From the NCBI GenBank assembly GCA_022661535.1, contig JAKULF010000010.1, positions 2,666,001 to 2,730,000 of the forward strand: a stretch of DNA of 64,000 nt, read 5' to 3'. Positions 5,108-57,270 of the stretch are shown here, in pieces (positions within the stretch are counted from its first letter, which is position 1; each line of letters opens with the position of its first letter). This stretch comes from Eutypa lata. Taxonomy: Eukaryota; Ascomycota; Sordariomycetes; Xylariales; Diatrypaceae. The position numbers were made by a program, and so were the translations under genes. Under the pieces are notes generated by a model. It was given only the letters and a program-made list of their open reading frames with translations, searched no databases and had not been told where the DNA came from.

Positions 5108-7298
5108 TTATTCCCTCAGGGGATCGTAGACCCGGTTCTTGATATACTTCTCCAGGTCAACGTCACCCCACTCTTCCCACTCGATCCACTGTGCTTCGGA
5201 GAGCTCACTGACACCCTCCCTACGGGCAGCCTTCATGACTTCGCGAGCGACGACAATACTAGCATCCCTGACACGTTCGATGTTCGGGTAGATCAAACCC
5301 TTCTGAATTTCCTCGGCGTTGAGTGTATCCGCCAAAGCTGAGGCAGAAATGTAGACCATTTCGTCGGTGATCTTGGAGGCCTTGGCAAGGATCGCTCCAA
5401 GACCGAGACCAGGGAAGACATAGACATTATTGCCTTGGTTGGGCCAATATGTCACTGCCTGCTCGCCAGCCTTGACCGCAAACGGTGAAAATGGCGAACC
5501 AGAAGCAAAGATGGCGGTTCCGTCCGTCCACTGGATGGCTTGCTCGAAAGTGCATTCAGCCTTAGTAAGAGGGTTGCTGAGAGGGAAGAGGATAGGTCGT
5601 CGGTTGACGCCTCCGGATTCAACCGAAGCCTTTAGGGCCCGAATGACCGACTCGGTGAAAACGCCGAAAGTAGCGGTTAGACCAACCAGAGCGGAGGGTC
5701 GGACATACTCAATGACCTCCTCGAGGGACCGGAATTGATGGCCGTTGTTATCTGTTCTAGCGAAGTACTTCTTGTGTTCAGCGAGTCTGTCACCCCGGTC
5801 TCTAGTCACGAGACCTTTGGTGTCGACGAGCCAGAACTTGTTCTTGGCTTCTTCCTCGGTCAGTCCACGACGAGTGTAATACTCGACAAGCTGCTTGGCA
5901 ACACCAACACCAGCGGAGCCAGCACCCATGAAGACTAGGCGCTGCTCCTCAAGAGGCACACCAGACAGGTTCACAGCACCGATGTAACTAATAACGAGGT
6001 TAGTCTAATATCCTACAGCCGGTTGTGAACGACAGGAATAACTCACCCTCCCAAGACGACGGCACCAGTTCCCTGGATGTCATCGTTGAAACACTTGTAC
6101 TTGTTGCGGTAGCGCGCAAGGTAGTTGAAGGCCTTCTCTGTCTCGAAGTCCTCGAACTGTGTGAGCATGTTAGGGAAGACGTCGGCAACAGCCTCCATGA
6201 ACTCGTCCATGAACTGCTGTTGGATCTCGGGTGATGGACGGCGAGCTCGGAGGCCGAGATATAACGGGTCCTTCAGGTTACCCTCATTATTGGTACCGCA
6301 GTCCAGGACGATGGGGAGGGTCTTCTCGGGGTGAATTCCGGCAGCTCCGGTGTAAAGAGACAACTTTCCAATCTGATAATAACGTTAGCGATGAAGGAGC
6401 GATAAACTACAAGTTGCGCTAACGGGAGACCTACAGAGATTCCCACGCCATTAATGCCAAGATCGCCCAGACCCAAAATGCGGGAACCGTCCGTTACAAC
6501 GCAGATTTCTGGGTTCTGGTAGGGCCAGTTACGCAGGATGGTTCTGATCGACTTCCGTTGCTTAATGGAAATGTACAGCGCCTCTGGTCTGGTGTACAGC
6601 GTCGAGTACTGCAAGCACACATCGCCAATCGTGGGTGTGTAGACTAGGGGCATAAGTTCTCGGACATTGTCTATTAAAACACGGTAGAAGAGATCGAGGT
6701 TCTGATCCTTCAGACTTGACAAATACATATACTTGTCAATGCCGGTTTGTCTTGAATGAATCATCTTCATGCATCTTGCGACTTGAGTTTCCACACTCTC
6801 CATAGCGTGGGGTATTAAACCTGTCAAGTTCTTAGAGACGCGCTCATCGGGAGTGAATGAGAGGCCTGAGGAGGAAATCCACGTTAGTACAGAATCGTCA
6901 CCAGGCTGCATCTAGCTGCCATCCCCAAAGGGTTATGGGACATAAGGGAGATAATAAGCACCTTTGTTCCAAGCAGGTTCCCGCAGAACTTGGTAGCCAG
7001 AGGCGGCAGACTTAGAAATGTATTCTGTCTGGCTATATTGTTGGACCTCAGCGTAGTGGTCCTGGGAATACCCTCTTAGGCCGTCTAGGGAAGCCATTTT
7101 CATTTGTTCTTGGATTGCGGTGATATCAACAGAAGACATGGGGTTAAACGCGGATTGTCTTCGACTTAAAGAAAGCGATAAACGTTTACTAGAAACAGAA
7201 GAATGTGAAGAACGTCCAGAAACTACTGAAATGGAAGGGGATGATGAGCGTGGGGTAGATATATCGGAGCTTGCGGTGCTGAAATTCGTAAACGCCAT
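5108..7298 (-). CDS. Malic enzyme (probably NAD-dependent, mitochondrial)
   Basis: Oxidative decarboxylation of malate to pyruvate with reduction of NAD(P)+. Exons on the minus strand are 7298-6962, 6865-6435, 6372-6047 and 5987-5108; introns have GTGCTT..CAG, GTAGGT..CAG and GTGAGT..TAG ends and join in phase. Visible family marks are LMPLVYTPTIGDVC, ILGLGDLGINGVGI, the metal-binding stretch CFNDDIQGTGAVVLGG, and the nucleotide fold FMGAGSAGVGVAKQL. The malate-binding region and C-terminal domain are complete. With the ATG at 7298 the protein is 657 residues. The first 55 residues are rich in Ser, Arg and Thr and poor in acid, as in a mitochondrial presequence. The frame stays open upstream to an ATG at 7793 (822 residues), and an internal ATG at 7139 would give 604 residues, so the start is uncertain. 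Cofactor preference and compartment are inferences. Confidence 0.93.
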
Positions 7299-10200
7299 TT
7301 GACGCTTTGGGGAAGGTCGATGTGGTCCCGAAAAGAAAGAAGGATTCACGTTAGAACTAGGTGTTGGGCTGCAGTTCCTGGAGCTAGATGGGGTGCTGGA
7401 TGGGCTGATGCTAGCAAAGGTATGCTGATTAGAACTTGGGGTACAACAAGTATGCTTATTATTATTAGTGGTCCGAATGGTCCGGCCAGACGTTAAGGTA
7501 GTACCGGTAATACTGCTAGAGAATGGACCGGAAGCTGACGAACAGGGTTCGGGACAATCAAGGTGGCTGTGGTATGGAAGACAACGATGACCAGTGCCAG
7601 TATCGTGATTACTACCAGTAGTAATCGCGTTGATTTTATTCGTGCCAATCAACCTTGTTGTAGCTGCGGAATGTTGTCGTCGTCGTCGTCTGGTTATGAT
7701 GATCGAAAGAGGTGGTGCAAGTGGGCTTCTTAATATCGAATTACGAGGTCGACTAAACACCCATGTTCGGGTTTGTCCTGCAATGAAACCCATCGCTATT
7801 GGATGAAAATGCTGCAACCGACAACTGTGACAAGGGGTATGGTGAGAGGTTTCGCTACAGTTTCATGCCTATGGGCCATCAACCTTCTAGAGCTCTAAAC
7901 CGCCTCCAAGGCCGTTTGTGGGGTGATTTTGTAGCTTGGCTAAGGAACTTCAGTCATACCTTTTTGGATGTTATGTTTTAAAGGCTTTTATCTATTAGTA
8001 AACCCAATCCCCCTATTTACTATGTAGTAAGTGTGAAAGATCTATATTACTGATATCAGTTATGAGTACAGCACATCATTCGTATTCAATACTATTGTTT
8101 TCAAATTCAATGTTGCTTACCTACATGTAGGTATGTACAATACTTACGGCACGGATATCGCTAAAAGGTCAGGGTAACTGGAGGAGGCTCCGGAGATCGT
8201 TTAGCCGCAACGGGCAGCAATAATATAGCGTTAATAGGCTTTTTCTCAGTGGTTGATTGTGGGGAAATTGGAGTTGTTACTCTAGCTAGTAGCTATGTAT
8301 GTATGAAGGAACCTCAAATATTAACAAACCATGAGAATAATCAGCAAAACAGTTCCTTCTTGAGCAGGTGTGCCTCTGATGTGCGATGTTCAAATACCTA
8401 ACTTAGTAACAAATCTCCGATATTTCTTTTTTATCCTGTTTTTCTCTACTCTCCTCACCTAGATTAATTCTAGAAAAATTTTGTTGGGCCCGTCGAATAC
8501 TTCCCGGGTCGGGCACAATGGAATGAAGAGCTAGGAGAATTAAGGGCGTACGTACACGCTAAACCGCAATACTCTGGTATGTATGTACTGTATATACCTA
8601 CATACCTACATATCATACAGTATCTGTTGAGCTACATTATTATCTCGTTGAATTCTGAATATTTGAGAACTTCATCATACATTTTCTCAACTTGCGGTCG
8701 AATTGCAATCCTGATGTATAGTATCATCTACCTGTCTGCAAGCCCAGAATAACTAACCACAAGTCTACAACACAAAGATGGAATTCTCTCTTAACAGGGA
8801 TGACACTGACGGGACCGGTGGATCTTTCTAGCTCCCTGGCTCCCTATGTAGAAAGAAGCACTAGACCTCCGCGTGAAGCTCTGGGTTTTCTAGCGGACGG
8901 GGTCTCATCTCCAAATCTGCAAAATCTGAGTGCCTTGGCGCCTCCAAATTTGGGGAAAAGGCGGCCCCGACGCTAGATCGTGACCCCTGGATTTCGTCCG
9001 AACTGTGCATGCCTCCGTCCGGTGTCCACTGTTGCTCCCATTGTTGGTCCGATCTGCTATGTATGTATGGCTTTTTAACGGAGGAGATCGTAGGACTTTC
9101 GTTCTAACTACATAATACAACTTACTACATATGTACCTATGTATGTGCCTACTAGGGCTTATCACTGATGATACTGCAGTGTCTTGCATAAATGATAGCA
9201 CCATCCCAATCATTACCTGTGAAACCATGGAGGATTCTGTTGAATTTCTAACATGCTACCAAAGCGGCGGGATCTGGATATATCGGCCGGGTCTCCAATT
9301 CGACAATTCCATGTTACTATGTACTTGGCGCTAGATATTCGTGTGATCCCGTTGCTAATTGGTGGTGATGCCAGTCCCACCGAATCCATAGTCCCAACAC
9401 GGATGGAAAATTGTTATATGTAAATATTCCATATCCGCAGGGAATTGCAGTTGGGCAGCCTGGGCAGTTGGTTTCCTGACTAATGCAGAGGTGCCTGCAT
9501 GAGACTGCAATAGATAGATGCGGATCTCTCGTGACGACGATACCCCATTCTTATCCACCATCTCGGTCTATCTTGCGGTTGGTCAATATCTTCAACCGGG
9601 AACTAATATGTATATAGTTAATTCCTGTTAGTAAAACATATGTGTTGTGTATTAACTAAATGTCGAAAGCGGTCAACATTGCGATACATTGCCGCCGAAA
9701 CACAGGAAAGCCCATGGCGTAAGTAGGTACTCCATATGTAAGCTGAGTCGTCTGAACTTGAACTCGTTCCTCTTGGCCCCCCAGCCTATGGTAGCCAAAC
9801 AGTCAGGCTGACCCAGCTGAAGGCTGCAGCTCAAGAGTCTCGGGACCTCCGCCCAGCCGCCCTGAACGATGGGGGTCGGTTTATGACCCTGGTCTAAAAT
9901 AGCTGCCGGCGCACGCGACAGATCCTTGCTTGCCGAGAGGATGGCTACATAACCTGGGTCCGATTTCTCCCGATCTCCGCCCTAGTTTGGAGAAGCCCTC
10001 GCTTTTTGCTCTCAACGTTCTAGTTACTCTAGACAAGTTTTTGTTGTCCGTGCCTGCGTGCTTGGTCATAGAATGATGGGCGCCGGACCTCCACCATACC
10101 CCATTCGACCTCACTTGGCGCTTTCCCCCCGTGACGGGTTGCAAGTTGAAACTTGAAATCCTAGATTCTGATACAGCCTGTTCCGTGCCTTTTATGCCTA

Positions 10201-40804: not shown

Positions 40805-42675
40805 ATGGCTCCCAAGAATAAGGGAGGTTCTAAGGTGAAGGCAACTGAATGTAAGCAATCGATCTATTCATTTCATCCTTTGTACTCAATTTCCAAGCTC
40901 CGCAACAAAGAGCATCTGTATCGTCATCCCAAATTTCTACACACAAACCCACACACCCTCCCTCCATCTTACTTTACTACCTTGCTACCTTACTAACGCC
41001 CGAAAAGCCAAAGACCAAACGTCGTCCTCTACGCCCCCACAACCACCACCGCGAACCCCCAACGAGCGCAGCTGGCAGCTGTACTACGCGACGAACCCGT
41101 ACCAGAAGGAGTTCGAGGAGCTGGGCCCCCATGGCATGAGCCCCGCCGCCCGCCTCGCCCACGCCTACTCGTCCTACGTGAAGCCGGGCGCCGCCGACGT
41201 GCTGTCGAAGAAGGCGCAGAAGGACCTGTGGAAGCAGGCGAGCGAGCTGAACCTGCCGCTGCGCAACCTGCCGAGGCCCGAGCCCTTCCGCTTCGGCCGC
41301 GACAAGAACGGCCGCGACCTCGGCGACTACCCCATCGAGGAGTTCGACGCCTACCGCGCGAAGCGCTCCCGGCTGTCCAGCCTCGAGTCCGCGAGCGACC
41401 GGTTCCGCACCCACAGGGAGAAGCAGGAGGTCGGCGTCGTCGACTGGGAGACCGGCGAGAAGGTCGAATATACCGTCACCGAGGAGGATACCCAGGCCGA
41501 GAGGCTACGGCGCAAGGAGATGGCGGACCTGAGGAAGGACCTCTTCGGCCAGAAGACCGCTTCGTATGCCTTGGATCCGGAGTGGGACGACGTTACACCC
41601 ATACCGCAGGTCGAGCCTGAGGGAGCGCTCGCCGCTATCGCGTATCCAGAGGATTTTGCTGAGTGTATGTTTCTTTATCCACCCTCCCGGGCATCTTTTC
41701 TCCCATAGTCTTCTAGTAAGTTTGTAATGCTAACAGAGCACTGATCTAGCGATGTCGTACCTACGTGCCGTCATGGCCGCGAAGGAGTACTCGCCGCGGG
41801 CCCTGCAGCTGACGGACCGCATCATCTCGATGAACCCGGCACACTACACGGTGTGGCTGTACCGGTTCGCCATCGTGGAGGCGCTGAACATCTCGATCCC
41901 GGACGAGATCGCGTGGCTGAACGAGGTGTCGCTCGAGCACCTGAAGAACTACCAGATCTGGAACCACCGCCAGCTGCTGCTGGACCACTACTACCCGGCG
42001 ATCGCGACGTCGGACGACGAGGTGCGGGCGCTCGCCCGCTCCGAGACCGACTTCATCGCCCAGATGCTCGACCTCGACACCAAGAACTACCACGTCTGGA
42101 GCTACCGCCAGTACCTGGTGCGGAAGCTCGGGCAGGCGCTGTGGCCGTCCTCGGAGGCCGCCGCCCCGGAGGACCAGGAGGCCGCCAGCACGGAGCTGCG
42201 CGGCGTCTCGCAGCTCCTCAACCGCGACGTCCGCAACAACTCGGCCTGGTCGCACCGCTTCTTCGTCGTGTTCTCGGACCCGGGCCAGAGCACGCCGGGC
42301 AGGCACGCGACGGAGCCCGACGCCGACGCCGTCCCCGCCGCCGTCGTCGACCGCGAGCTCGCCTACGCCAAGGCCAAGATCGACCTCGCGCCCCAGAACC
42401 AGAGCCCCTGGAACTACCTCCGCGGCGTGCTGGTCAAGGGGGCCCGGCCGCTGAGCGAGGCCCGGGATTTCGCGGAGTCGTTTCTTCAGCATCTTGGCGA
42501 GGAGGAGGAAGAGGAGGCGGTCCAGAGCTCCCATGCCCTCGACCTCCTTGCTGATGTCTATAAGGAGGCTGGTGACCGGGAGCGCGCTGATCTCGCACTC
42601 AGGCGCCTCGCGGAGAAGTGGGATCCTATCCGCCGTGGCTATTGGGGCTATAGGCGGAAGTTGCTGAATGCCTAA
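40805..42675 (+). CDS. RAM2: Protein farnesyltransferase/geranylgeranyltransferase type I alpha subunit, with long N-terminal extension
   Basis: Shared alpha subunit of the two CAAX prenyltransferases. Exons are 40805-40850, 41008-41664 and 41750-42675; introns GTAAGC..AAG and GTATGT..TAG join in phase, giving 542 residues. The family core starts near residue 210 at DPEWDDVTPIPQ, then MSYLRAVMAAKEYSPRALQLT. It has five PFTA repeats with the Trp signature (HYTVWLYR, NYQIWNHRQ, NYHVWSYRQ, NNSAWSHRF, QSPWNYLRG). Usual family members are about 330-380 residues, so roughly 190 N-terminal residues (basic head, Pro-rich linker, charged helix with WETGEKVEYTVTEEDTQAERLRRKE) are extra. The frame is continuous through exon 2, so the extension appears genuinely coding. 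G+C at third positions is very high. Confidence 0.93.
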
Positions 42676-46488: not shown

Positions 46489-47711
46489 TCAGACGACCCC
46501 AAACCTCTCCTGGTACGCCCTCAGCATCTCCAGCGTCACGTTCGACCCCCCACAGACGATCAGGACGACGTTCTTGCCAGCCCACTCCTCGTCGCGCAGC
46601 CCCGCGCCCAGCACCCGCCGCAAGTCGCCGTTGTAGACGGGCGCGACCGCGGCGCCGCACGCCACCTCGACCAGCATGAGCGCGTCGTTCGCGAACCGCA
46701 CGGAGCCCGCGACGGCGTCCGCGTCCGAAACGACATGGCTCGTCAGGTGCGCCGCCGACCGGGTCCACTCGAAAGCCTGCTCCGCAACCCGCACGGCGCC
46801 CAGGCTCGTCGCCACGCTCGTGATAGCCGGGAGCGTGACGAGCTCGCCCGCCCGCACGCTCTGATTCAGACTGTCGGCGCCGAGCGTCTCGATGGCGAGG
46901 ACCCTCGGCTTGTCTTTCAACCTCTCGACCCCCTCCATGATCCCGCTTAACAGACCCCCACCGCCAACCGAGCACACGATACCGTCAATCTTACCGCTAT
47001 TATTTCCAGTATTACCACTACCGCTACCGCTCGCGGCAGCCAGCAAAGACCCCGCCGTCTGCGCGACGACCTCATCGACGATGGAAGCCGCGCCTTCCCA
47101 GACGTGCGGATGATCGAAGGGCGGCACGTAGATGGCGGCCTTCGGATCATCGCGCGCCAACAGCTCCGTGCGCAGGAACTTGTCGGCGCTGGACCAGTCG
47201 GCGCCCACCTGGTGCACGGTAGCACCCAGAAGCCGTAGCTTCGCTATCTGGTGCGCCGGCGCCGTCAGCGGCACGACGATCGTGCAGGTGCAGGGGGCGC
47301 CGCCCCGACTCAGGGCGGCGGCGGCGGTCGCGCAGGCGAGCCCCGCATTGCCTCCGGAGGAGCAGTAAAAGTGCACCACCACCGTCCCCTTGTCCTTGTC
47401 CTCGTCGGCGGGAGATTTAGTATCAGTGCTAGCTTTTTGGTGCGCTAGGAGCGCCCGCCTCATCATGTTCCCTATCCCGCGGGACTTGAATGACCCTGAG
47501 GGCTGCAGGTTCTCTAGCTTTAGAAATATGTTGCTGTTTGCGTAGGTTTTTCCGTTCGGTTAGTGTCGGCTTTTTTTTAATAAAAAAAAACACATCATAA
47601 GGAGAGGTCCATATCCATAACATACCATCCCGCTACTTGGGAGAGCGCCGTTGATGGGATGCATGGTGTCTCGATCCAGAGCTTTTGCGGTTCGGGGTCG
47701 TACGAACCCAT
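46489..47711 (-). CDS. L-serine/threonine dehydratase, PLP-dependent (Cha1-like)
   Basis: Deaminates serine to pyruvate, and threonine to 2-oxobutanoate, with pyridoxal phosphate. Exons are 47711-47626 and 47533-46489 (intron GTATGT..CAG, 92 bases), 376 residues. The join gives QVAGCNIFLKLENLQPSGSFKSRG with the Schiff-base Lys at about residue 45. Other marks are YCSSGGNAGLA, the phosphate-binding VGGGGLLSGI and the C-terminal IVCGGSN. A Ser/Gly/Asn repeat stretch lies in the middle (LLAAASGSGSGNTGNNSG). Exon 2 has very high G+C at third positions, so it also has long antisense open frames. The family is clear; the preference for Ser over Thr is not visible. Confidence 0.92.
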
Positions 47712-48427: not shown

Positions 48428-48778
48428 TTAGTGTAACTTGGCGCCATTGACCATGTCGCCTTCGGAAGCACTCCAGGCATAAACGACGGCTTCATCAGCA
48501 TCGCCTTCCTCAGCCCGCCGCGATTTAGCGCCATTCACTGTCTCTCCCTCCGAAGTGCTCCATGCGTAAACTACTGCTTCATCCGGATCGCCGTCTTCAG
48601 CACGTACTTTGATCATCTCGGCAGACTCGTGCAGCGAAGAACCTGCGCCAAATATTAACTTTGAACTATACCTACGGTTCAGTTTATGCTTACCTTGCCT
48701 AGCCACGCTAGCAGGCAGTGCAGCCCCTAGGGCTACAGGGCCAAGGACGGTAATAATGTAGGCGGAGGAGCAGAGCAT
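48428..48778 (-). CDS. Candidate secreted ribosomal-peptide (RiPP) precursor with two tandem repeats
   Basis: Predicted 99 residues from exons 48778-48694 and 48642-48428. The 51-base intron (GTAAGC..CAG) is a multiple of three, so the unspliced frame is also open (116 residues). Residues 1-24 form a clear signal peptide (hydrophobic YIITVLGPVALGAALPA). Residues 43-71 and 72-99 are two repeats, 21 of 26 compared positions identical, each AE-x-GD-x-DEAVVYAWS-x-SEG followed by VNGAK. The second unit follows SRR, a possible Kex2-type site; the first follows KVR, which is less typical. The acidic leader in each unit and the conserved Tyr (YAW) resemble ustiloxin-, phomopsin- and asperipin-type precursors, whose Tyr is oxidatively cyclised. 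Two UstYa-family genes lie immediately next to it. An alternative is a pheromone-like secreted peptide. No CAAX end is present. Confidence 0.7.
   Translation of the reverse strand: MLCSSAYIITVLGPVALGAALPASVARQGKHKLNRRYSSKLIFGAGSSLHESAEMIKVRAEDGDPDEAVVYAWSTSEGETVNGAKSRRAEEGDADEAVVYAWSASEGDMVNGAKLH
48431..48601 (-). repeat. Two 84-87 base tandem repeats inside the precursor gene
   Basis: Units 48601-48515 and 48514-48431 encode the two near-identical segments of the precursor. At the DNA level they differ mainly at third positions while the protein is conserved, most strictly around DEAVVYAWS. This suggests selection on the peptide. Confidence 0.85.
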
Positions 48779-49537: not shown

Positions 49538-50388
49538 ATGACATTTCACGCTAAATATATTCCCATCCTAGAAGATAACAATGACGACCAAGTTCTCCCC
49601 GAGAGCTTGGTTCCTGAAGAACCTTGGCGAGACAACTCATCAAAGGGGTGCAAACTGAACCACAAACTCCTCCGTCTCGTGCTCGTGGCTCTTCCCGCAG
49701 CCTTTGTGTCAGGCACCACTGGTTTCTACTTGGGAAAGTACTTAGAAAGACATCAAGTTGAACCTGACTGGCTCTGTAAGTTTCTGATACACATTTGATC
49801 ATTGCTGAACAAACACTGATGGCTATGTTACAGCACCACCGGGAATAATCAACACCAAATTTAACTACGAAGCACAGTTTGGGGCCACTACTGGAGAAGA
49901 CTCCCAGAGGTACTGGGAATCAATTTTTCCTCGTAGGTGATTTGTATTGGGCTAGAGTTATTTATTGCTAATGCTTACTAATGGTATCGTTTTACCAGGT
50001 GGTCGCGGGTTTGTCCAGCACCCGCAGATATCCCCTGAGCCAACGTGTGTTTCCATGTATCATCAACTCCACTGCCTTGTGAGAGACTCTTGGGTGCTTC
50101 ATTTTATGACTACTTCTAACAATCGGCTAGGATGCTATCCGTCGTGGGTACGGGGCAGCTATGGAAGGAGTTGAGCCTGGGCTCCACGTTAAGCCGCGGC
50201 ATATCCATCATTGCCTGGATTACCTGCGACAGTCCATCATGTGCCACGCAGACGCGAACCTCGAGCCCATAGACATGACCCTTGGCGGGGTGAAAGGGTT
50301 CGGATCACCAAGAAAATGTCGGGATTCCAACAAATTGAAAGAGTGGGCCGATACGTGGAGGACACATAACGAGACTATCATCGATTGA
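49538..50388 (+). CDS. UstYa-family oxidase-like protein (DUF3328), first copy
   Basis: Predicted 224 residues from exons 49538-49775, 49834-49932, 49999-50078 and 50131-50388; the three GT-AG introns keep phase. It begins MTFHAKYIPILED, typical of the family's short cytosolic head, and has one membrane helix at about 44-66. The two paired family motifs are HQLHC (about 134-138) and HIHHC followed by LDYLRQSIMCHAD (about 163-180). In ustiloxin, phomopsin and related pathways, proteins with these HxxHC motifs carry out oxidative cyclisation of the precursor peptide. The gene is divergent from the precursor and tail-to-tail with the second UstYa gene. A longer N-terminus from an upstream in-frame ATG is possible but less like the family. 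Confidence 0.9.
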
Positions 50389-50719: not shown

Positions 50720-51794
50720 CTAAGCATGTTGCTCTGGCATAAATAAGTTAGGGTCATAAAGATCCACACTTCGTGACTTCGCCCACCCTGAAAGTCTATC
50801 CCATCTGACACACCGATGTAGAGCACCTTCTTTCACAGTAGGCCCAATGGCAGAATGGTTTTCGTCGCGCAGCCATCGGAACGGATTAACAGCAACGTCA
50901 CCATGGCACATTGCCGCCTGACGAAGGAACTCCAAGCAATGGTCTATAATAATTATCAGCTACGATTTTACGAGAATAGAACGATGCCACCAAACAAACA
51001 GACAAACAATCAAAACAAACATACCTGCATGTGCTGAGCGTTCATCATAGGCGGCTTGAGTCTGGTTCGAATAATAATAGTCCTTATATATCCATTTACG
51101 TAGTTGTTTCTTTGATTTATTAGCTGTTTCGAGATACTGCCATGGTTCGAGTTGATATGGCTTACCACACAATGGAGCTCATGGTAAACTCCCAGCGTAG
51201 CAAGGTATCCCGAGCCGTCGCTCATTGCCAGTGAGGTTTGACCCAGCTGCAGCATTTCCTCATCAGAGACCATCAGATTTATCCCTGTAGGCAATGTAAG
51301 CAAGCACATAATCCTGGCTTCAGGTTTGCGTTTATCTACCTTCCATTAGGCCCGCCCATGCCTCATCTGATTTGGGATTGGGATACCCGGTGAACTCATT
51401 CTTCACTCCGGTCAATCCATCGATTGGCCGGACTTCATATTCAATGACGGCCTGGGCAGGTGCTATTTTACCGTTCCAAAAGTCAGCCCTGTTTTCTGAG
51501 GTTGAAATGTGTGTTTTTCTACTCACAGTAGATAATTGAATCACACATCGGTGATCTAGCCCAGTGCGTACTGATGACCAAGGAGATCAGGGCAGCATAC
51601 GAGCAAAACGCAATCCCGTGGAATACAGCATAACGTAGGAAAGGAGTGTCCCAAAGGCACCGGGCGACACCTGCGGGAGGTTCTGCATCCTCGGGTTTGA
51701 ACGCTTTCGTGCTAGGCCTTATATCCTTCTCAAGGAAAGGAAGGGATTCCGCTGCAGACTCTGATGATTTCCGATGCTCCTGCATTGATCCCAT
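50720..51794 (-). CDS. UstYa-family oxidase-like protein (DUF3328), second copy
   Basis: Predicted 272 residues from exons 51794-51527, 51462-51340, 51284-51166, 51109-51025 and 50943-50720. All four introns are GT-AG and phase-consistent. Residues 1-50 are a charged head, and a membrane helix lies at about 54-75. In the luminal part I see EYEVRP, YPNPKSDEAWAGLM, the first family motif HELHC (about 165-169), KQLRKWIYKDYYY, and the second motif HADHC (about 197-201) completed exactly across the last splice, followed by LEFLRQAAMCHGD. It is clearly different in sequence from the first copy, as with the UstYa/UstYb pair in ustiloxin clusters. The C-terminal 60 residues (from VNPFRWLRDENHS) are Trp- and Arg-rich. 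Confidence 0.9.
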
Positions 51795-53074: not shown

Positions 53075-54522
53075 ATGGTGCTCAGCAGAAACACAAACAT
53101 TATTATTATCTCGGCGGTGTTTTCCGTCCTAGCCATCGTGGCCGTATTAATGAGGTTCAGGGCTCGAATGCTTCAAAGGGTTGGATTCCAAGCTGACGAC
53201 TATCTCATCATCCCCGGCCTTGTGAGTCACATTCCCATCCTCCAATGAGTCGTCTGCTTATGCTACTAGGTGTTTTCCATTGGAATCGGTGCGACGAACA
53301 TCGCCGGTTGGTATTATTTCCCCCATCTAGTATGTTCACTTGCTAAAGATGCCTATCAGCTGCGATCCTAGGAAACTTGGGAAACCACGTGCAATTGGGG
53401 GAGGACGGCGCACCAAAGTTCGACGACAGCTTGACAGTATACAAGCAGGTGAGATGCCAACCTCGACCGATCACCTTAGTAGACTAACTTTACCATTAGA
53501 CTGACTTCGCTACTCAATTGTTGTCCATCCTAGCTCTGGCCTTTACCCAGCTCTCAATCCTTTTCCTTTATCGCCGCATCTTCACAGGGAGACTATTTTC
53601 AAAGATCACCAATACCATCATTGTCTTAGTCTGCGCTTGGGCTGCCTCCTTTTTCTTCGCGGATCTTTTGCAATGCATCCCTACCAACGAAATATGGACC
53701 TCCTGGGAGGGCCAACCAGGCCACCTTGAGCACTGCTATAACTACATTCCGATGTTTTATGGCACTGCGATTTCTCATATGATTATGGACCTCCTGATCT
53801 TGTCTATCCCCGTACCTATGGTGTGGAAGCTCCAGAGTAAGTGGTTTGCGGCCTTTATCATCACCACCGTTATCGAAGCATCCAGACCTGCGTGTAGTTT
53901 AATCAAAAGGGGTTACTGGCGAGGAAGTCGCACAAAAGCCCGGAATTCCCATAAACTTATACGAACAGAGCTAGTACTGATATGAGATCATATAGTGCCA
54001 ACTAGTCAAAAGCTTGCTGTTACCGGAATCTTCATGTTGGGTGCCTTGTGAGTCAATCAAGCTGGATATAAGAAGCCCGTGACTAACAAATACATAGCGT
54101 GGTTGGAATTAGCGTCGCACGAGTCTACTTCTTCTTTTCGGTCGGGGCGAACATCGAGAGGGCATGGGACATCACATGTAAGTTTGGAGGATATTTGCTC
54201 CAGCATGGAATACTAACTATTAGCAATAGATGAACGGGCCCCCACAATCTACTGGTCTCAACTTGAAGCGGCGATCGCCATTGTTTGCGCTTGCTTGCCA
54301 ACCTTGCGCGTGCTTTTTGTAGACATCTCGCTTGAGACTATCGCCAAGAGGTTTGCAAGCAAGATCTCCCTGTTCAGTGGCAGCAAGTCATCCTTCCGCA
54401 CTATGCCGAAACCAAGTCAAGGCAGTATATCCTCGGCCAGCGGTCTTCAACAGACAGGGGAGGCAATTCGTTTGTCAAGCCTTGATCAACCGCACGGCCG
54501 TGATTTCCATGGGAAAGCGTAG
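53075..54522 (+). CDS. Fungal rhodopsin-domain (PTH11-like, seven-helix) integral membrane protein
   Basis: Predicted 340 residues from exons 53075-53221, 53270-53306, 53372-53448, 53500-53836, 53996-54047, 54098-54177 and 54230-54522. Six GT-AG introns all join in phase; the fourth is long (159 bases). Hydrophobic segments include IIIISAVFSVLAIVAVLM and then LLSILALAFTQLSILFLYRRIF, ISHMIMDLLILSIPVPMVW and VTGIFMLG. The motifs ADDYLI, SILFLYRRIF, the Pro-rich PVPMVWKLQ and YWSQLEAA are typical of the fungal rhodopsin-domain family. The tail is Ser-rich and cytosolic. Members often sit in or near secondary-metabolite clusters, but their molecular role is mostly unknown. Here it lies between the second UstYa gene and the O-methyltransferase. 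Confidence 0.88.
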
Positions 54523-55700: not shown

Positions 55701-57270
55701 ATGTCCTCCCGCATCACCCTCCTATCCTCTAGAATTGCCACAAATACAAGTAAACTCAATGATTACCTTGAAGCCAATGGCCTCCCTACGCCGTCATTCG
55801 AGGTCAATGGGCCATCTCAGTCTTCAGTTCCTTCCAGCGAGCCTGAGATAGAAGCTGCTCGCATTGCTATCATAGACGACACTCAGGAACTGCGTCGTCT
55901 GGTCCTTGGCCCCAGGGATTACCTCATGAGCAACCGTGTAAGTGAAAGCGGCAGGGACGAGAAATACCCTATTGATGACGATGGTACAGCACAACGCGCT
56001 CCTTAGCCAGCAAGCGATTGTACGGTTTCGCTTGGCCCATACCTTTCCTATCGGGCAAGAGGCAACGTTTGCAGATATCGCCAAAGCATCGGGTCTCAAT
56101 GAATCAGACGTTCGCCAAATTTTGCGACTTGCTGTCCTCCAGAATATCTTTGCGGAATCGCATCCTGGCCTCATTTCCCATACTGCTGTGTCGCGGTTGC
56201 TCGTGGAAGACCAACCTTTGAGCGATTGGGTCGCATCCAGCACAGATGACTTATGGCAAGCAGCAGCTCAAACCTGCAATGCTATGGCCAAATATCCCGG
56301 TTCCCAAGAGCCTACTGAGACGGTTAGTACAAGTCATCTATGTTACGAGCACGCCTTCATGCTAAATATTAACTCTGGGTAGGGATTCTCACTTGCAAAT
56401 CAAACGGACAAATCCATATACGAACTGTTTTCCCAGTTTCCTGAGCGTGCCCGGAGATTTGCCAATGCCATGCGTTCTTTTACCAATGGAAGTGGTTTCG
56501 AACTACGCCATATTGTGGACAACTTCCCTTGGGGCAATTTCCACAATGGCACGGTTGTTGATGTAATTCTAGATCTCAAAGAGGATGAAATTTTTTTCCA
56601 AATTGCTGATGAGTTTGATCTAGGTCGGCGGCTCTCAGGGATTCGTTTGCTTCGCCATTGGAAGAAAATTCCCCACGCTGTCATTCGTAGTCCAGGACCT
56701 CGAACCGGTAATTGAGGCCGCAAAGAAAGAGGTACCAGCCGATGACGAAGTCGGGAAACGCGTATCGTTTATGGCTCATGACTTTATCACCCCTCAGCCT
56801 ATCCACGGCGCTGATGTGTACATTTTCCGTTGGATATTTCACAATTGGTCAGACAAGTACTGCGTCCGCATCTTGAAAAACCTCATCCCTGCTCTCAAGC
56901 CAGGAGCCAAGATCGTCGTGAACGACACAGTCCTGCCACAACCCGGGGTACTCTCAAATTGGCAAGAATCCCGTATAAGGTTAGTTTTAATCACCGCAAA
57001 CTCTACGATTTCCGAGACTGTTCCTGGATATTCCGACGCTATCTATCCGCTTGCTACACCTATGAAAGACCTGTCTGTCATTGTGTGCTAACATACGCGC
57101 ACAGGAGCACAGACCTGACAATGAAGGAGATCCAAAACTCCCGCGAACGAGAGCTGGATGATTGGGTGCAGCTGTTCAAGACAGCTGACCCCCGATTCCA
57201 GTTTGAAGGCGCCATGCAGCCGGATGGTTCGGATTTATGGATCTTGACTGCGGAGTGGAAAGGGGACTGA
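55701..57270 (+). CDS. SAM-dependent O-methyltransferase (plant COMT-like)
   Basis: Predicted 423 residues from exons 55701-55937, 55990-56322, 56383-56562, 56624-56979 and 57105-57270. Introns are GTAAGT..CAG, GTTAGT..TAG, GTAATT..TAG, GTTAGT..CAG. The third intron is the telling one: splicing it joins GTVVD to VGGSQGF, restoring the SAM-binding loop. N-terminal helices (dimerisation) are followed by HNALLSQQAIVRFRLA, ADIAKASGL, GGSQG (about 252-256), FVVQDL and the catalytic region IFRWIFHNWSD with His at about 323, then PGAKIVVND. This is the fungal secondary-metabolite O-methyltransferase architecture. It is the right-most recognised member of the candidate peptide cluster. Its substrate could be the modified peptide or something unrelated. 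Confidence 0.92.

What the first reader, a model, noticed from the sequence alone, without database searches (positions are those of the whole stretch)
48428..48778. Two-repeat secreted precursor with conserved YAW core, a possible new dikaritin-type RiPP
A 99-residue predicted protein has a signal peptide and two near-identical 28-29 residue units (21 of 26 compared residues identical), each with acidic leader, DEAVVYAWS and SEG..VNGAK. The second unit follows a dibasic SRR. Known KexRiPP precursors share signal peptide, Kex2-cleaved repeats and a Tyr-containing core. The YAW core is not one I know from ustiloxin, phomopsin, asperipin or victorin. Weak points: only two repeats, and the first unit lacks a clean dibasic site.
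Basis: partly seen in the sequence, partly recalled or inferred. Interest (0 to 1): 0.88.

Follow-up and report, generated by a model that had tools for sequence, protein, structure and literature searches.

The report
Two-unit Tyr-Ala-Trp fungal RiPP precursor
A small gene in the grapevine fungus Eutypa lata (or a very close relative) encodes two near-identical peptide units holding Val-Val-Tyr-Ala-Trp next to two UstYa-family enzyme genes, and it likely makes a side-chain-crosslinked peptide of a kind that repeat-counting gene surveys would skip because it has only two units.

Summary
In detail: minus strand 48778-48428, a 99-residue product after a 51-base intron, with a signal-peptide-like start and two units matching at 21 of 26 residues, split by SRR. 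It is not chance: across 27 unit codons, 17 of 20 base differences are at third positions (13 synonymous codons, 5 nonsynonymous; pS 0.76, pN 0.09), so both units were kept at the protein level while silent sites ran close to saturation. Two UstYa genes with open gene models and double HxxHC motifs lie 0.8 and 1.9 kb away, followed by a fungal-rhodopsin gene and an O-methyltransferase. No tyrosinase match lies in the window. Precursor homologues were found only in Eutypa lata, whereas one UstYa enzyme has 47-64% relatives in other Xylariales. Best reading: an orphan UstYa (dikaritin-type) RiPP whose Y-A-W core is likely crosslinked by the UstYa pair; the bond, the protease steps and the product are untested. 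Seven of 17 other UstYa loci fetched from this genome also hold repeat precursors, two of them with two units, a size that published surveys (three repeats or more) exclude. A new member of a known kind, with a possible new crosslink chemistry.

The parts
48428..48778 (-). Precursor gene, exons 48778-48694 and 48642-48428, 99 residues
   Evidence: same model in public E. lata protein P0001
48643..48693 (-). 51-base intron (GTAAGC...GCAG), in frame if retained
   Evidence: splice agrees with P0001; no RNA evidence
48524..48601 (-). Unit 1 (26 residues); core VVYAW at 48560-48574
48515..48523 (-). SRR, holding the only dibasic (predicted Kex2) site of the spliced product
48437..48514 (-). Unit 2 (26 residues), followed by LH; core VVYAW at 48473-48487
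49538..50388 (+). UstYa gene 1, 4 exons, 224 aa, YHQLHC and HIHHC motifs
   Evidence: gene model by hand; PF11807 E 3.2e-21
50720..51794 (-). UstYa gene 2, 5 exons, 272 aa, YHELHC and HADHC motifs
   Evidence: gene model by hand; PF11807 E 5.1e-46; relatives
53075..54522 (+). Fungal-rhodopsin (PF20684) membrane-protein gene; cluster membership unproven
   Evidence: exon 53500-53982, E 2.4e-25; outer limits read by eye
55701..57270 (+). O-methyltransferase gene (PF00891); cluster membership likely
   Evidence: exon 56624-57088, E 1.5e-20; outer limits read by eye; a methyltransferase also lies beside UstYa genes in L026 and beside UstYa relics in L031

Best explanation
The ORF encodes a two-unit peptide precursor beside two UstYa-family genes, and it is predicted to enter the secretory pathway, be cut by Kex2 after Arg-Arg, and have its Tyr-Ala-Trp core likely crosslinked side chain to side chain (Tyr to the Trp two places on) by the two UstYa enzymes. 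Shown by the sequence and calls: the two units, the selection that kept them, the open UstYa gene models with double HxxHC motifs, the methyltransferase gene nearby. Inferred: secretion, Kex2 cleavage, binuclear-copper chemistry (shown for other DUF3328 enzymes), the Tyr-x-Trp bond, O-methylation of the product, and trimming of the acidic N-terminal and SEG..VNGAK C-terminal arms by unknown peptidases.
For: (1) Unit-against-unit codon test: 9 identical, 13 synonymous, 5 nonsynonymous of 27 codons; pS 0.76, pN 0.089; Fisher P 5e-8. (2) Two UstYa gene models 0.8 and 1.9 kb away, both over the Pfam cut-off. The HxxHC pair is invariant in the 27 relatives of UstYa 2 that were aligned. A model of the Whalleya relative places the two motifs on two successive helices, after one long N-terminal helix, in line with the description of copper-dependent CctR (PMC12435403 abstract and passages). 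(3) A uniform scan for aromatic, dibasic, repeated ORFs over 258 kb (the window plus 20 stretches covering 17 of the 18 other UstYa loci of this genome) found six, all in UstYa loci; in the window only this one. (4) A related methyltransferase lies beside UstYa genes at L026 and beside UstYa relics at L031. (5) Tyr is the crosslinked residue in ustiloxin, asperipin and phomopsin (PMC7329392 section 7), and the four-gene asperipin cluster has no tyrosinase (PMC6514808 passages); no tyrosinase match lies in this window.
Against: No product, transcript or cross-species precursor homologue. Only two units and one dibasic site; unit 1 follows KVR. The UstYa models are mine: no Eutypa lata protein was among the 27 named or unnamed hits of UstYa 2 that carry a species name, and UstYa 1 was not searched in the protein database. 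A Kex2 gene was not located in this genome by any of three tries (43 with 78-79; 80), perhaps a limit of exon-wise searching but not proven so. Nothing shows which residues are linked: Trp is no commoner in repeats beside DUF3328 genes than in others (20.5% against 24.5%, PMC7329392 section 7). The passages I read describe no UstYa product with a Tyr-Trp bond. The flanking arms are about as conserved as the core, so selection does not single out YAW.
Confidence: 0.6

Rival explanations
1. Same RiPP class, but Tyr is joined through oxygen to the beta-carbon of a Val, as Tyr is joined to Ile in phomopsin; Trp is only a recognition or activity residue.
For: Ustiloxins and phomopsins share an EDYXI core (PMC6339444 passage) and phomopsin has a Tyr-Ile ether (PMC6514808 passages). 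Both units keep V-V before Tyr.
Against: In EDYXI the Ile follows Tyr by two places; here that place is Trp and the valines precede Tyr. No tyrosinase, which those two pathways use (PMC7329392 section 7), matches in the window.
Confidence: 0.2
2. A UstYa pathway without a ring: the enzymes hydroxylate or desaturate residues of the units.
For: DUF3328 enzymes are also implicated in hydroxylation, halogenation and isomerisation (PMC12435403) and in dehydroamino-acid formation (only the title of that paper seen, in the reference list of PMC12186524).
Against: For the characterised repeat precursors DUF3328 proteins are indispensable for cyclisation, at Tyr (PMC7329392 section 7); both units keep the Tyr.
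Confidence: 0.12
3. An unmodified, Kex2-released linear peptide (signal, pheromone or effector) whose gene merely lies near UstYa genes that act on something else.
For: 78% of surveyed Kex2 repeat proteins had no DUF3328 gene among the 15 closest genes, so linear products may be common (PMC7329392 section 7).
Against: The nearest gene modelled on one side is a UstYa gene, with a second after it. Nearly all precursors annotated as mating factors or pheromones lacked such neighbours (three exceptions; PMC7329392 abstract). The repeat scan found no such ORF elsewhere in the window.
Confidence: 0.07
4. A chance or decayed ORF.
For: No RNA evidence; no homologue found outside the species.
Against: Third-position bias between units, an unbroken frame with usable splice sites, and identical units in two public proteins.
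Confidence: 0.01

Closest known systems
Asperipin-2a cluster (Aspergillus flavus)
   Same: Small cluster, UstYa-type cyclase, no tyrosinase among its four genes, aromatic core peptide (PMC6514808 passages)
   Different: Here two UstYa genes, not one; two units; core VVYAW, not FYYTGY; a methyltransferase and a fungal-rhodopsin gene nearby in place of the transporter and isoflavone reductase
Ustiloxin / phomopsin (dikaritins)
   Same: Two (ustiloxin) or five (phomopsin) DUF3328 genes with a secreted repeat precursor (PMC7329392 section 7); Tyr followed two places on by Ile there, Trp here
   Different: 16 or 8 repeats against 2 (PMC6514808 passages); Ile against Trp; tyrosinase, which those pathways use, without a match in the window
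Kex2-processed repeat proteins (KEPs)
   Same: Signal-like N-terminus, near-identical units, a dibasic site between them
   Different: Falls under the published lower limit of three repeats (PMC7329392 section 13; PMC6339444 passages)
Lichen Clan R1 UstY clusters
   Same: Two UstY genes together with an O-methyltransferase
   Different: Lichen clusters also hold tyrosinase and FGE-sulfatase, and no conserved repeats were found in their candidate precursors (PMC12048977 passages)
Bacterial biarylitides (crosslinked aromatic-x-aromatic, Trp accepted)
   Same: A ribosomal peptide crosslinked between Tyr and an aromatic residue two places on, Trp being accepted there (PMC13417212 passages)
   Different: Cytochrome P450 instead of UstYa; five-residue precursor; bacterial. 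Resemblance of motif only, not homology

Membership tests
UstYa-type RiPP (dikaritin, DUF3328 as class-defining enzyme) | DUF3328/UstYa gene with two HxxHC motifs beside the precursor | tested here: met
   Two gene models, PF11807 E 5.1e-46 and 3.2e-21, both HxxHC motifs present in each
UstYa-type RiPP (dikaritin, DUF3328 as class-defining enzyme) | N-terminal signal peptide | tested here: inconclusive
   Hydropathy peak 2.26 at residues 8-16; no signal-peptide predictor was run
UstYa-type RiPP (dikaritin, DUF3328 as class-defining enzyme) | Repeated core units containing Tyr | tested here: met
   Two units, 21 of 26 identical, VVYAW in both
UstYa-type RiPP (dikaritin, DUF3328 as class-defining enzyme) | Dibasic Kex2 site between units | tested here: met
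   RR between the units; none before unit 1; cleavage itself not tested
UstYa-type RiPP (dikaritin, DUF3328 as class-defining enzyme) | Crosslinked peptide product | not testable with these tools
   Needs LC-MS or an enzyme assay
Dikaritin in the narrow (phomopsin/ustiloxin) sense | Tyrosinase gene in the cluster | tested here: not met
   23 PF00264 matches in the genome, none in the window; nearest on the same contig about 175 kb away
Dikaritin in the narrow (phomopsin/ustiloxin) sense | S41 peptidase gene in the cluster | tested here: inconclusive
   PF03572 gave no match anywhere in the genome, 1 candidate scored; exon-wise search may miss it
KEP as defined in published surveys | At least three tandem repeats between Kex2 sites | tested here: not met
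   Two units; rule read in PMC7329392 section 13 and in passages of PMC6339444
KEP as defined in published surveys | Kex2 protease encoded by the host | tested here: inconclusive
   PF01483 gave 0 matches, 0 candidates; a recalled active-site pattern 0; of 44 S8 matches 2 were examined and showed no P-domain

The most novel reading that the evidence does not exclude
A fungal ribosomal peptide in which a pair of copper-dependent UstYa enzymes joins Tyr to Trp across one residue (Y-x-W), giving a biarylitide-like ring by a wholly different enzyme family, then O-methylated by the cluster's methyltransferase; and the first described of a two-unit class of UstYa precursors that mining pipelines discard by rule.
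Probability: 0.28. Interest if true: 0.68.

Novelty: new member of a known kind. Interest (0 to 1): 0.47.

Why it matters
If right, it is an orphan RiPP pathway in a grapevine trunk-disease fungus with a core unlike the characterised UstYa products I read about, and a clean substrate for asking what bonds UstYa enzymes can make. It also exposes a blind spot: the two surveys of Kex2 repeat proteins that I looked into demanded three repeats or more, while in this genome three of the eight UstYa loci at which I found a repeat precursor (window, L023, L026) have exactly two units. The codon test between units, which needs no other genome, is a cheap way to accept or reject such short precursors.

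Tried and rejected
Precursor homologues: two protein searches with different length ranges (candidates about 54-173 aa, E up to 1, repeat region only, about 132-420 aa, E up to 10) gave only the Eutypa lata protein P0001 and an assembly protein with identical units, P0002, without a species name. Paralogue in the genome: only itself; the second hit, E 0.11, 26% identity, I do not take as a relative. Units of the other precursors against the window's: shuffles reaching the observed score were 281 (L026), 3439 (L023), 68 (L029), 812 (L011), 126 (L012), 1765 (L013) and 3216 (L019) of 5000. The best, 68 of 5000, is one of seven comparisons, so the loci share a plan, not a shown ancestor.

PALP enzyme 46492-47559 as a tailoring enzyme: left out, nothing ties it to the cluster. 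Kex2 gene: not located. Fungal-rhodopsin genes near UstYa: matches within 10 kb of 5 of 19 loci where 1.2 are expected from 156 matches (P 0.008). But one search scored only 150 of 295 candidates, so 156 is a lower bound; with 295 the expectation would be about 2.3 and the excess no longer clear. Methyltransferase: 2 of 19 where 0.3 are expected (P 0.04). I grouped the loci myself; both are weak.

An earlier, laxer scan also listed low-complexity and antisense self-matches, one of them in the window (41945-42451, score 97); these fall to the limits on identity, dibasic site and aromatic residue used, which I set.

Full report
What is there. The reported ORF exists on the minus strand, ATG at 48778 and stop ending at 48428. 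With the 51-base intron 48693-48643 removed it gives 99 residues. A public Eutypa lata protein, MGN70_004751, has the same spliced model with a single difference, Y7F, in the signal region. A second public protein without a species name has identical units and differs at two positions, both outside them. So the window comes from Eutypa lata or a very close relative (Xylariales, Diatrypaceae; that it is a grapevine pathogen is recalled). The genome is G000, 54.5 Mb in 29 contigs, window at C14:2666001-2730000.

More than chance. The two units match at 21 of 26 residues. The internal self-match scores 117; 1000 shuffles of the mature part reached at most 48. The strongest test compares the two units as codons: of 27, 9 are identical, 13 differ silently and 5 change the residue. 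Of 20 base differences 2, 1 and 17 fall on codon positions 1, 2 and 3. Silent sites differ at 76% and replacement sites at 9% (Fisher P 5e-8). The duplication is therefore old and both copies have been held at the protein level; recent gene conversion would have made the silent sites alike too (inference). The limit of the test: the acidic arm and the SEG..VNGAK arm are kept about as well as VVYAW, so it shows that the units matter, not that YAW alone does.

The neighbours. I built gene models for two UstYa genes: UstYa 1 at 49538-50388, plus strand, four exons, 224 residues; UstYa 2 at 51794-50720, minus strand, five exons, 272 residues. Both pass the Pfam UstYa cut-off (E 3.2e-21 and 5.1e-46) and both keep the double HxxHC motif. 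UstYa 2 has 27 database relatives at E 0.001 or better among 342 candidates. The closest, from Whalleya microplaca, is 60% identical over 99% of the length. Of the first 16 hits, 13 come from genera that I place in Xylariales from memory (47-64% identity over 65-99% of the query); the others are Chaetomium, Madurella and Lasiodiplodia. Four further hits that I would also place there fall to 30-37%. No hit bears the name Eutypa lata, so no public annotation backs my UstYa 2 model. In all 27 the HxxHC residues are invariant. A fungal-rhodopsin gene (53075-54522) and an O-methyltransferase gene (55701-57270) follow. Further out lie a PALP-type enzyme and a GNAT gene on the left and a class I (methionyl type) tRNA synthetase on the right. 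No tyrosinase matches in the window.

The rest of the genome as a control. The UstYa family matches at 37 places, which I grouped into 19 loci, the window's included (list). I fetched 20 stretches covering 17 of the 18 other loci (the locus at C5:3092288 was not fetched). A uniform scan of these plus the window (258 kb, six frames) for repeated, dibasic, aromatic ORFs returned six, at L019, L029, L011, L013, L026 and the window. In the window only the finding passed. Two more precursors that fail the identity limit were seen at L012 and L023. So seven of the 17 other fetched loci hold a repeat precursor, and two of them, L023 and L026, have exactly two units. The cores differ: VWLW, DYNTLG, VIYPDY, YRANAWG, WNAAAW and so on, and no unit is clearly related to the window's.

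Does the methyltransferase belong? Its relatives in the genome include 63% at C8:5745013 (no UstYa match there, L032), 58% at L031 and 45% at L026. L026 holds UstYa genes, a two-unit precursor, a methyltransferase and an exon that resembles P450 only below Pfam's cut-off; a fungal-rhodopsin exon lies just beyond it at C6:4087493. L031 holds decayed pieces resembling UstYa 1 and UstYa 2 beside an open methyltransferase frame, and no repeat precursor was seen there. A methyltransferase of this kind thus lies with UstYa genes or their relics at three loci; but the closest relative of all does not, so I take membership as likely, not shown. A 2025 paper on lichens states that O-methyltransferases had never been reported in dikaritin clusters (PMC12048977, passages seen).

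How it most likely works. Signal-directed entry into the secretory pathway, Kex2 cleavage after the Arg-Arg between units, and oxidation by the UstYa pair follow from the family. [quoted passage not shown] Our model of the Whalleya relative agrees in plan: disordered start, one long helix at 51-83, and the two HxxHC motifs on successive helices 161-176 and 187-211. Asperipin is made from a four-gene cluster with one such enzyme and no tyrosinase (PMC6514808 passages). In ustiloxins and phomopsins the core is Tyr-x-Ile (EDYXI, PMC6339444 passage). Here the residue two places after Tyr is Trp in both units. I therefore commit to a Tyr-to-Trp side-chain link as the likeliest single bond, while giving the full novel case well under even odds; the class assignment is much firmer than the bond.

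Against. No product, transcript or homologue in another species; only two units; one dibasic site; no public UstYa 2 protein from the species; Kex2 not located by exon-wise searching. Trp is not enriched in repeats next to DUF3328 genes (20.5% against 24.5%; PMC7329392 section 7), so a Trp in the core is not by itself a sign of crosslinking.

Novelty. Searches of the open-access library with UstYa, DUF3328, dikaritin, Eutypa lata, RiPP, Trp and methyltransferase terms showed no title or abstract start on this precursor or on a Tyr-Trp UstYa product among the rows listed; the lists are capped and the library lacks most subscription journals. Of the papers I saw: PMC7329392 abstract, sections 7 and 13 and passages; PMC12435403 abstract and passages; PMC6339444, PMC12048977, PMC6514808, PMC12186524, PMC13417212 and PMC7099791 passages only. 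Two surveys set a floor of three repeats (PMC7329392 section 13; PMC6339444 passages), so their rule would have passed over this gene. I file it as a new member of the UstYa RiPPs in the broad sense (DUF3328 as the defining enzyme), not of the narrow phomopsin/ustiloxin group (tyrosinase not met) and not of the KEPs as surveyed (three repeats not met).

Noticed in passing
L029 (G000 C14:2552000-2561999) 2269-2718, minus: UstYa-linked repeat precursor with about ten short units of the type KDSDDVWLWKK; a Trp-x-Trp core and no Tyr in the repeat.
   Followed up: partly
L026 (G000 C6:4075300-4085299) 1833-1970, minus: Two-unit precursor with units ending VIYPDY in a locus with UstYa genes and an O-methyltransferase; between units 12 codons identical, 6 silent, 1 changed.
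   Followed up: partly
L023 (G000 C13:454500-464499) 2556-2786, minus: 69-residue two-unit precursor with a hydrophobic start and Tyr and Trp in each unit (YRRGAWGKR / YRANAWGKR) in a UstYa locus.
   Followed up: partly
L019 3976-4647 minus; L011 3191-3541 plus; L013 6635-6964 plus; L012 2747-3106 minus: Four further UstYa-linked repeat precursors with cores GVWASYGYDE, DYNTLG, DWNAAAWSNFIKSYFPEE and YSIIVYSIG.
   Followed up: no
L031 (G000 C5:5418001-5428000) about 5531-6200 and 7874-9175: Decayed UstYa-1-like and UstYa-2-like pieces next to an open methyltransferase frame, with no repeat precursor seen: looks like a relic of a similar cluster.
   Followed up: partly
G000 genome-wide: Fungal-rhodopsin (PF20684) matches lie within 10 kb of 5 of 19 UstYa loci; 1.2 expected from the 156 scored matches, about 2.3 if the unscored candidates are real too.
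   Followed up: partly
window 46492-47559, minus: PALP-family enzyme gene bordering the cluster; membership not shown.
   Followed up: no
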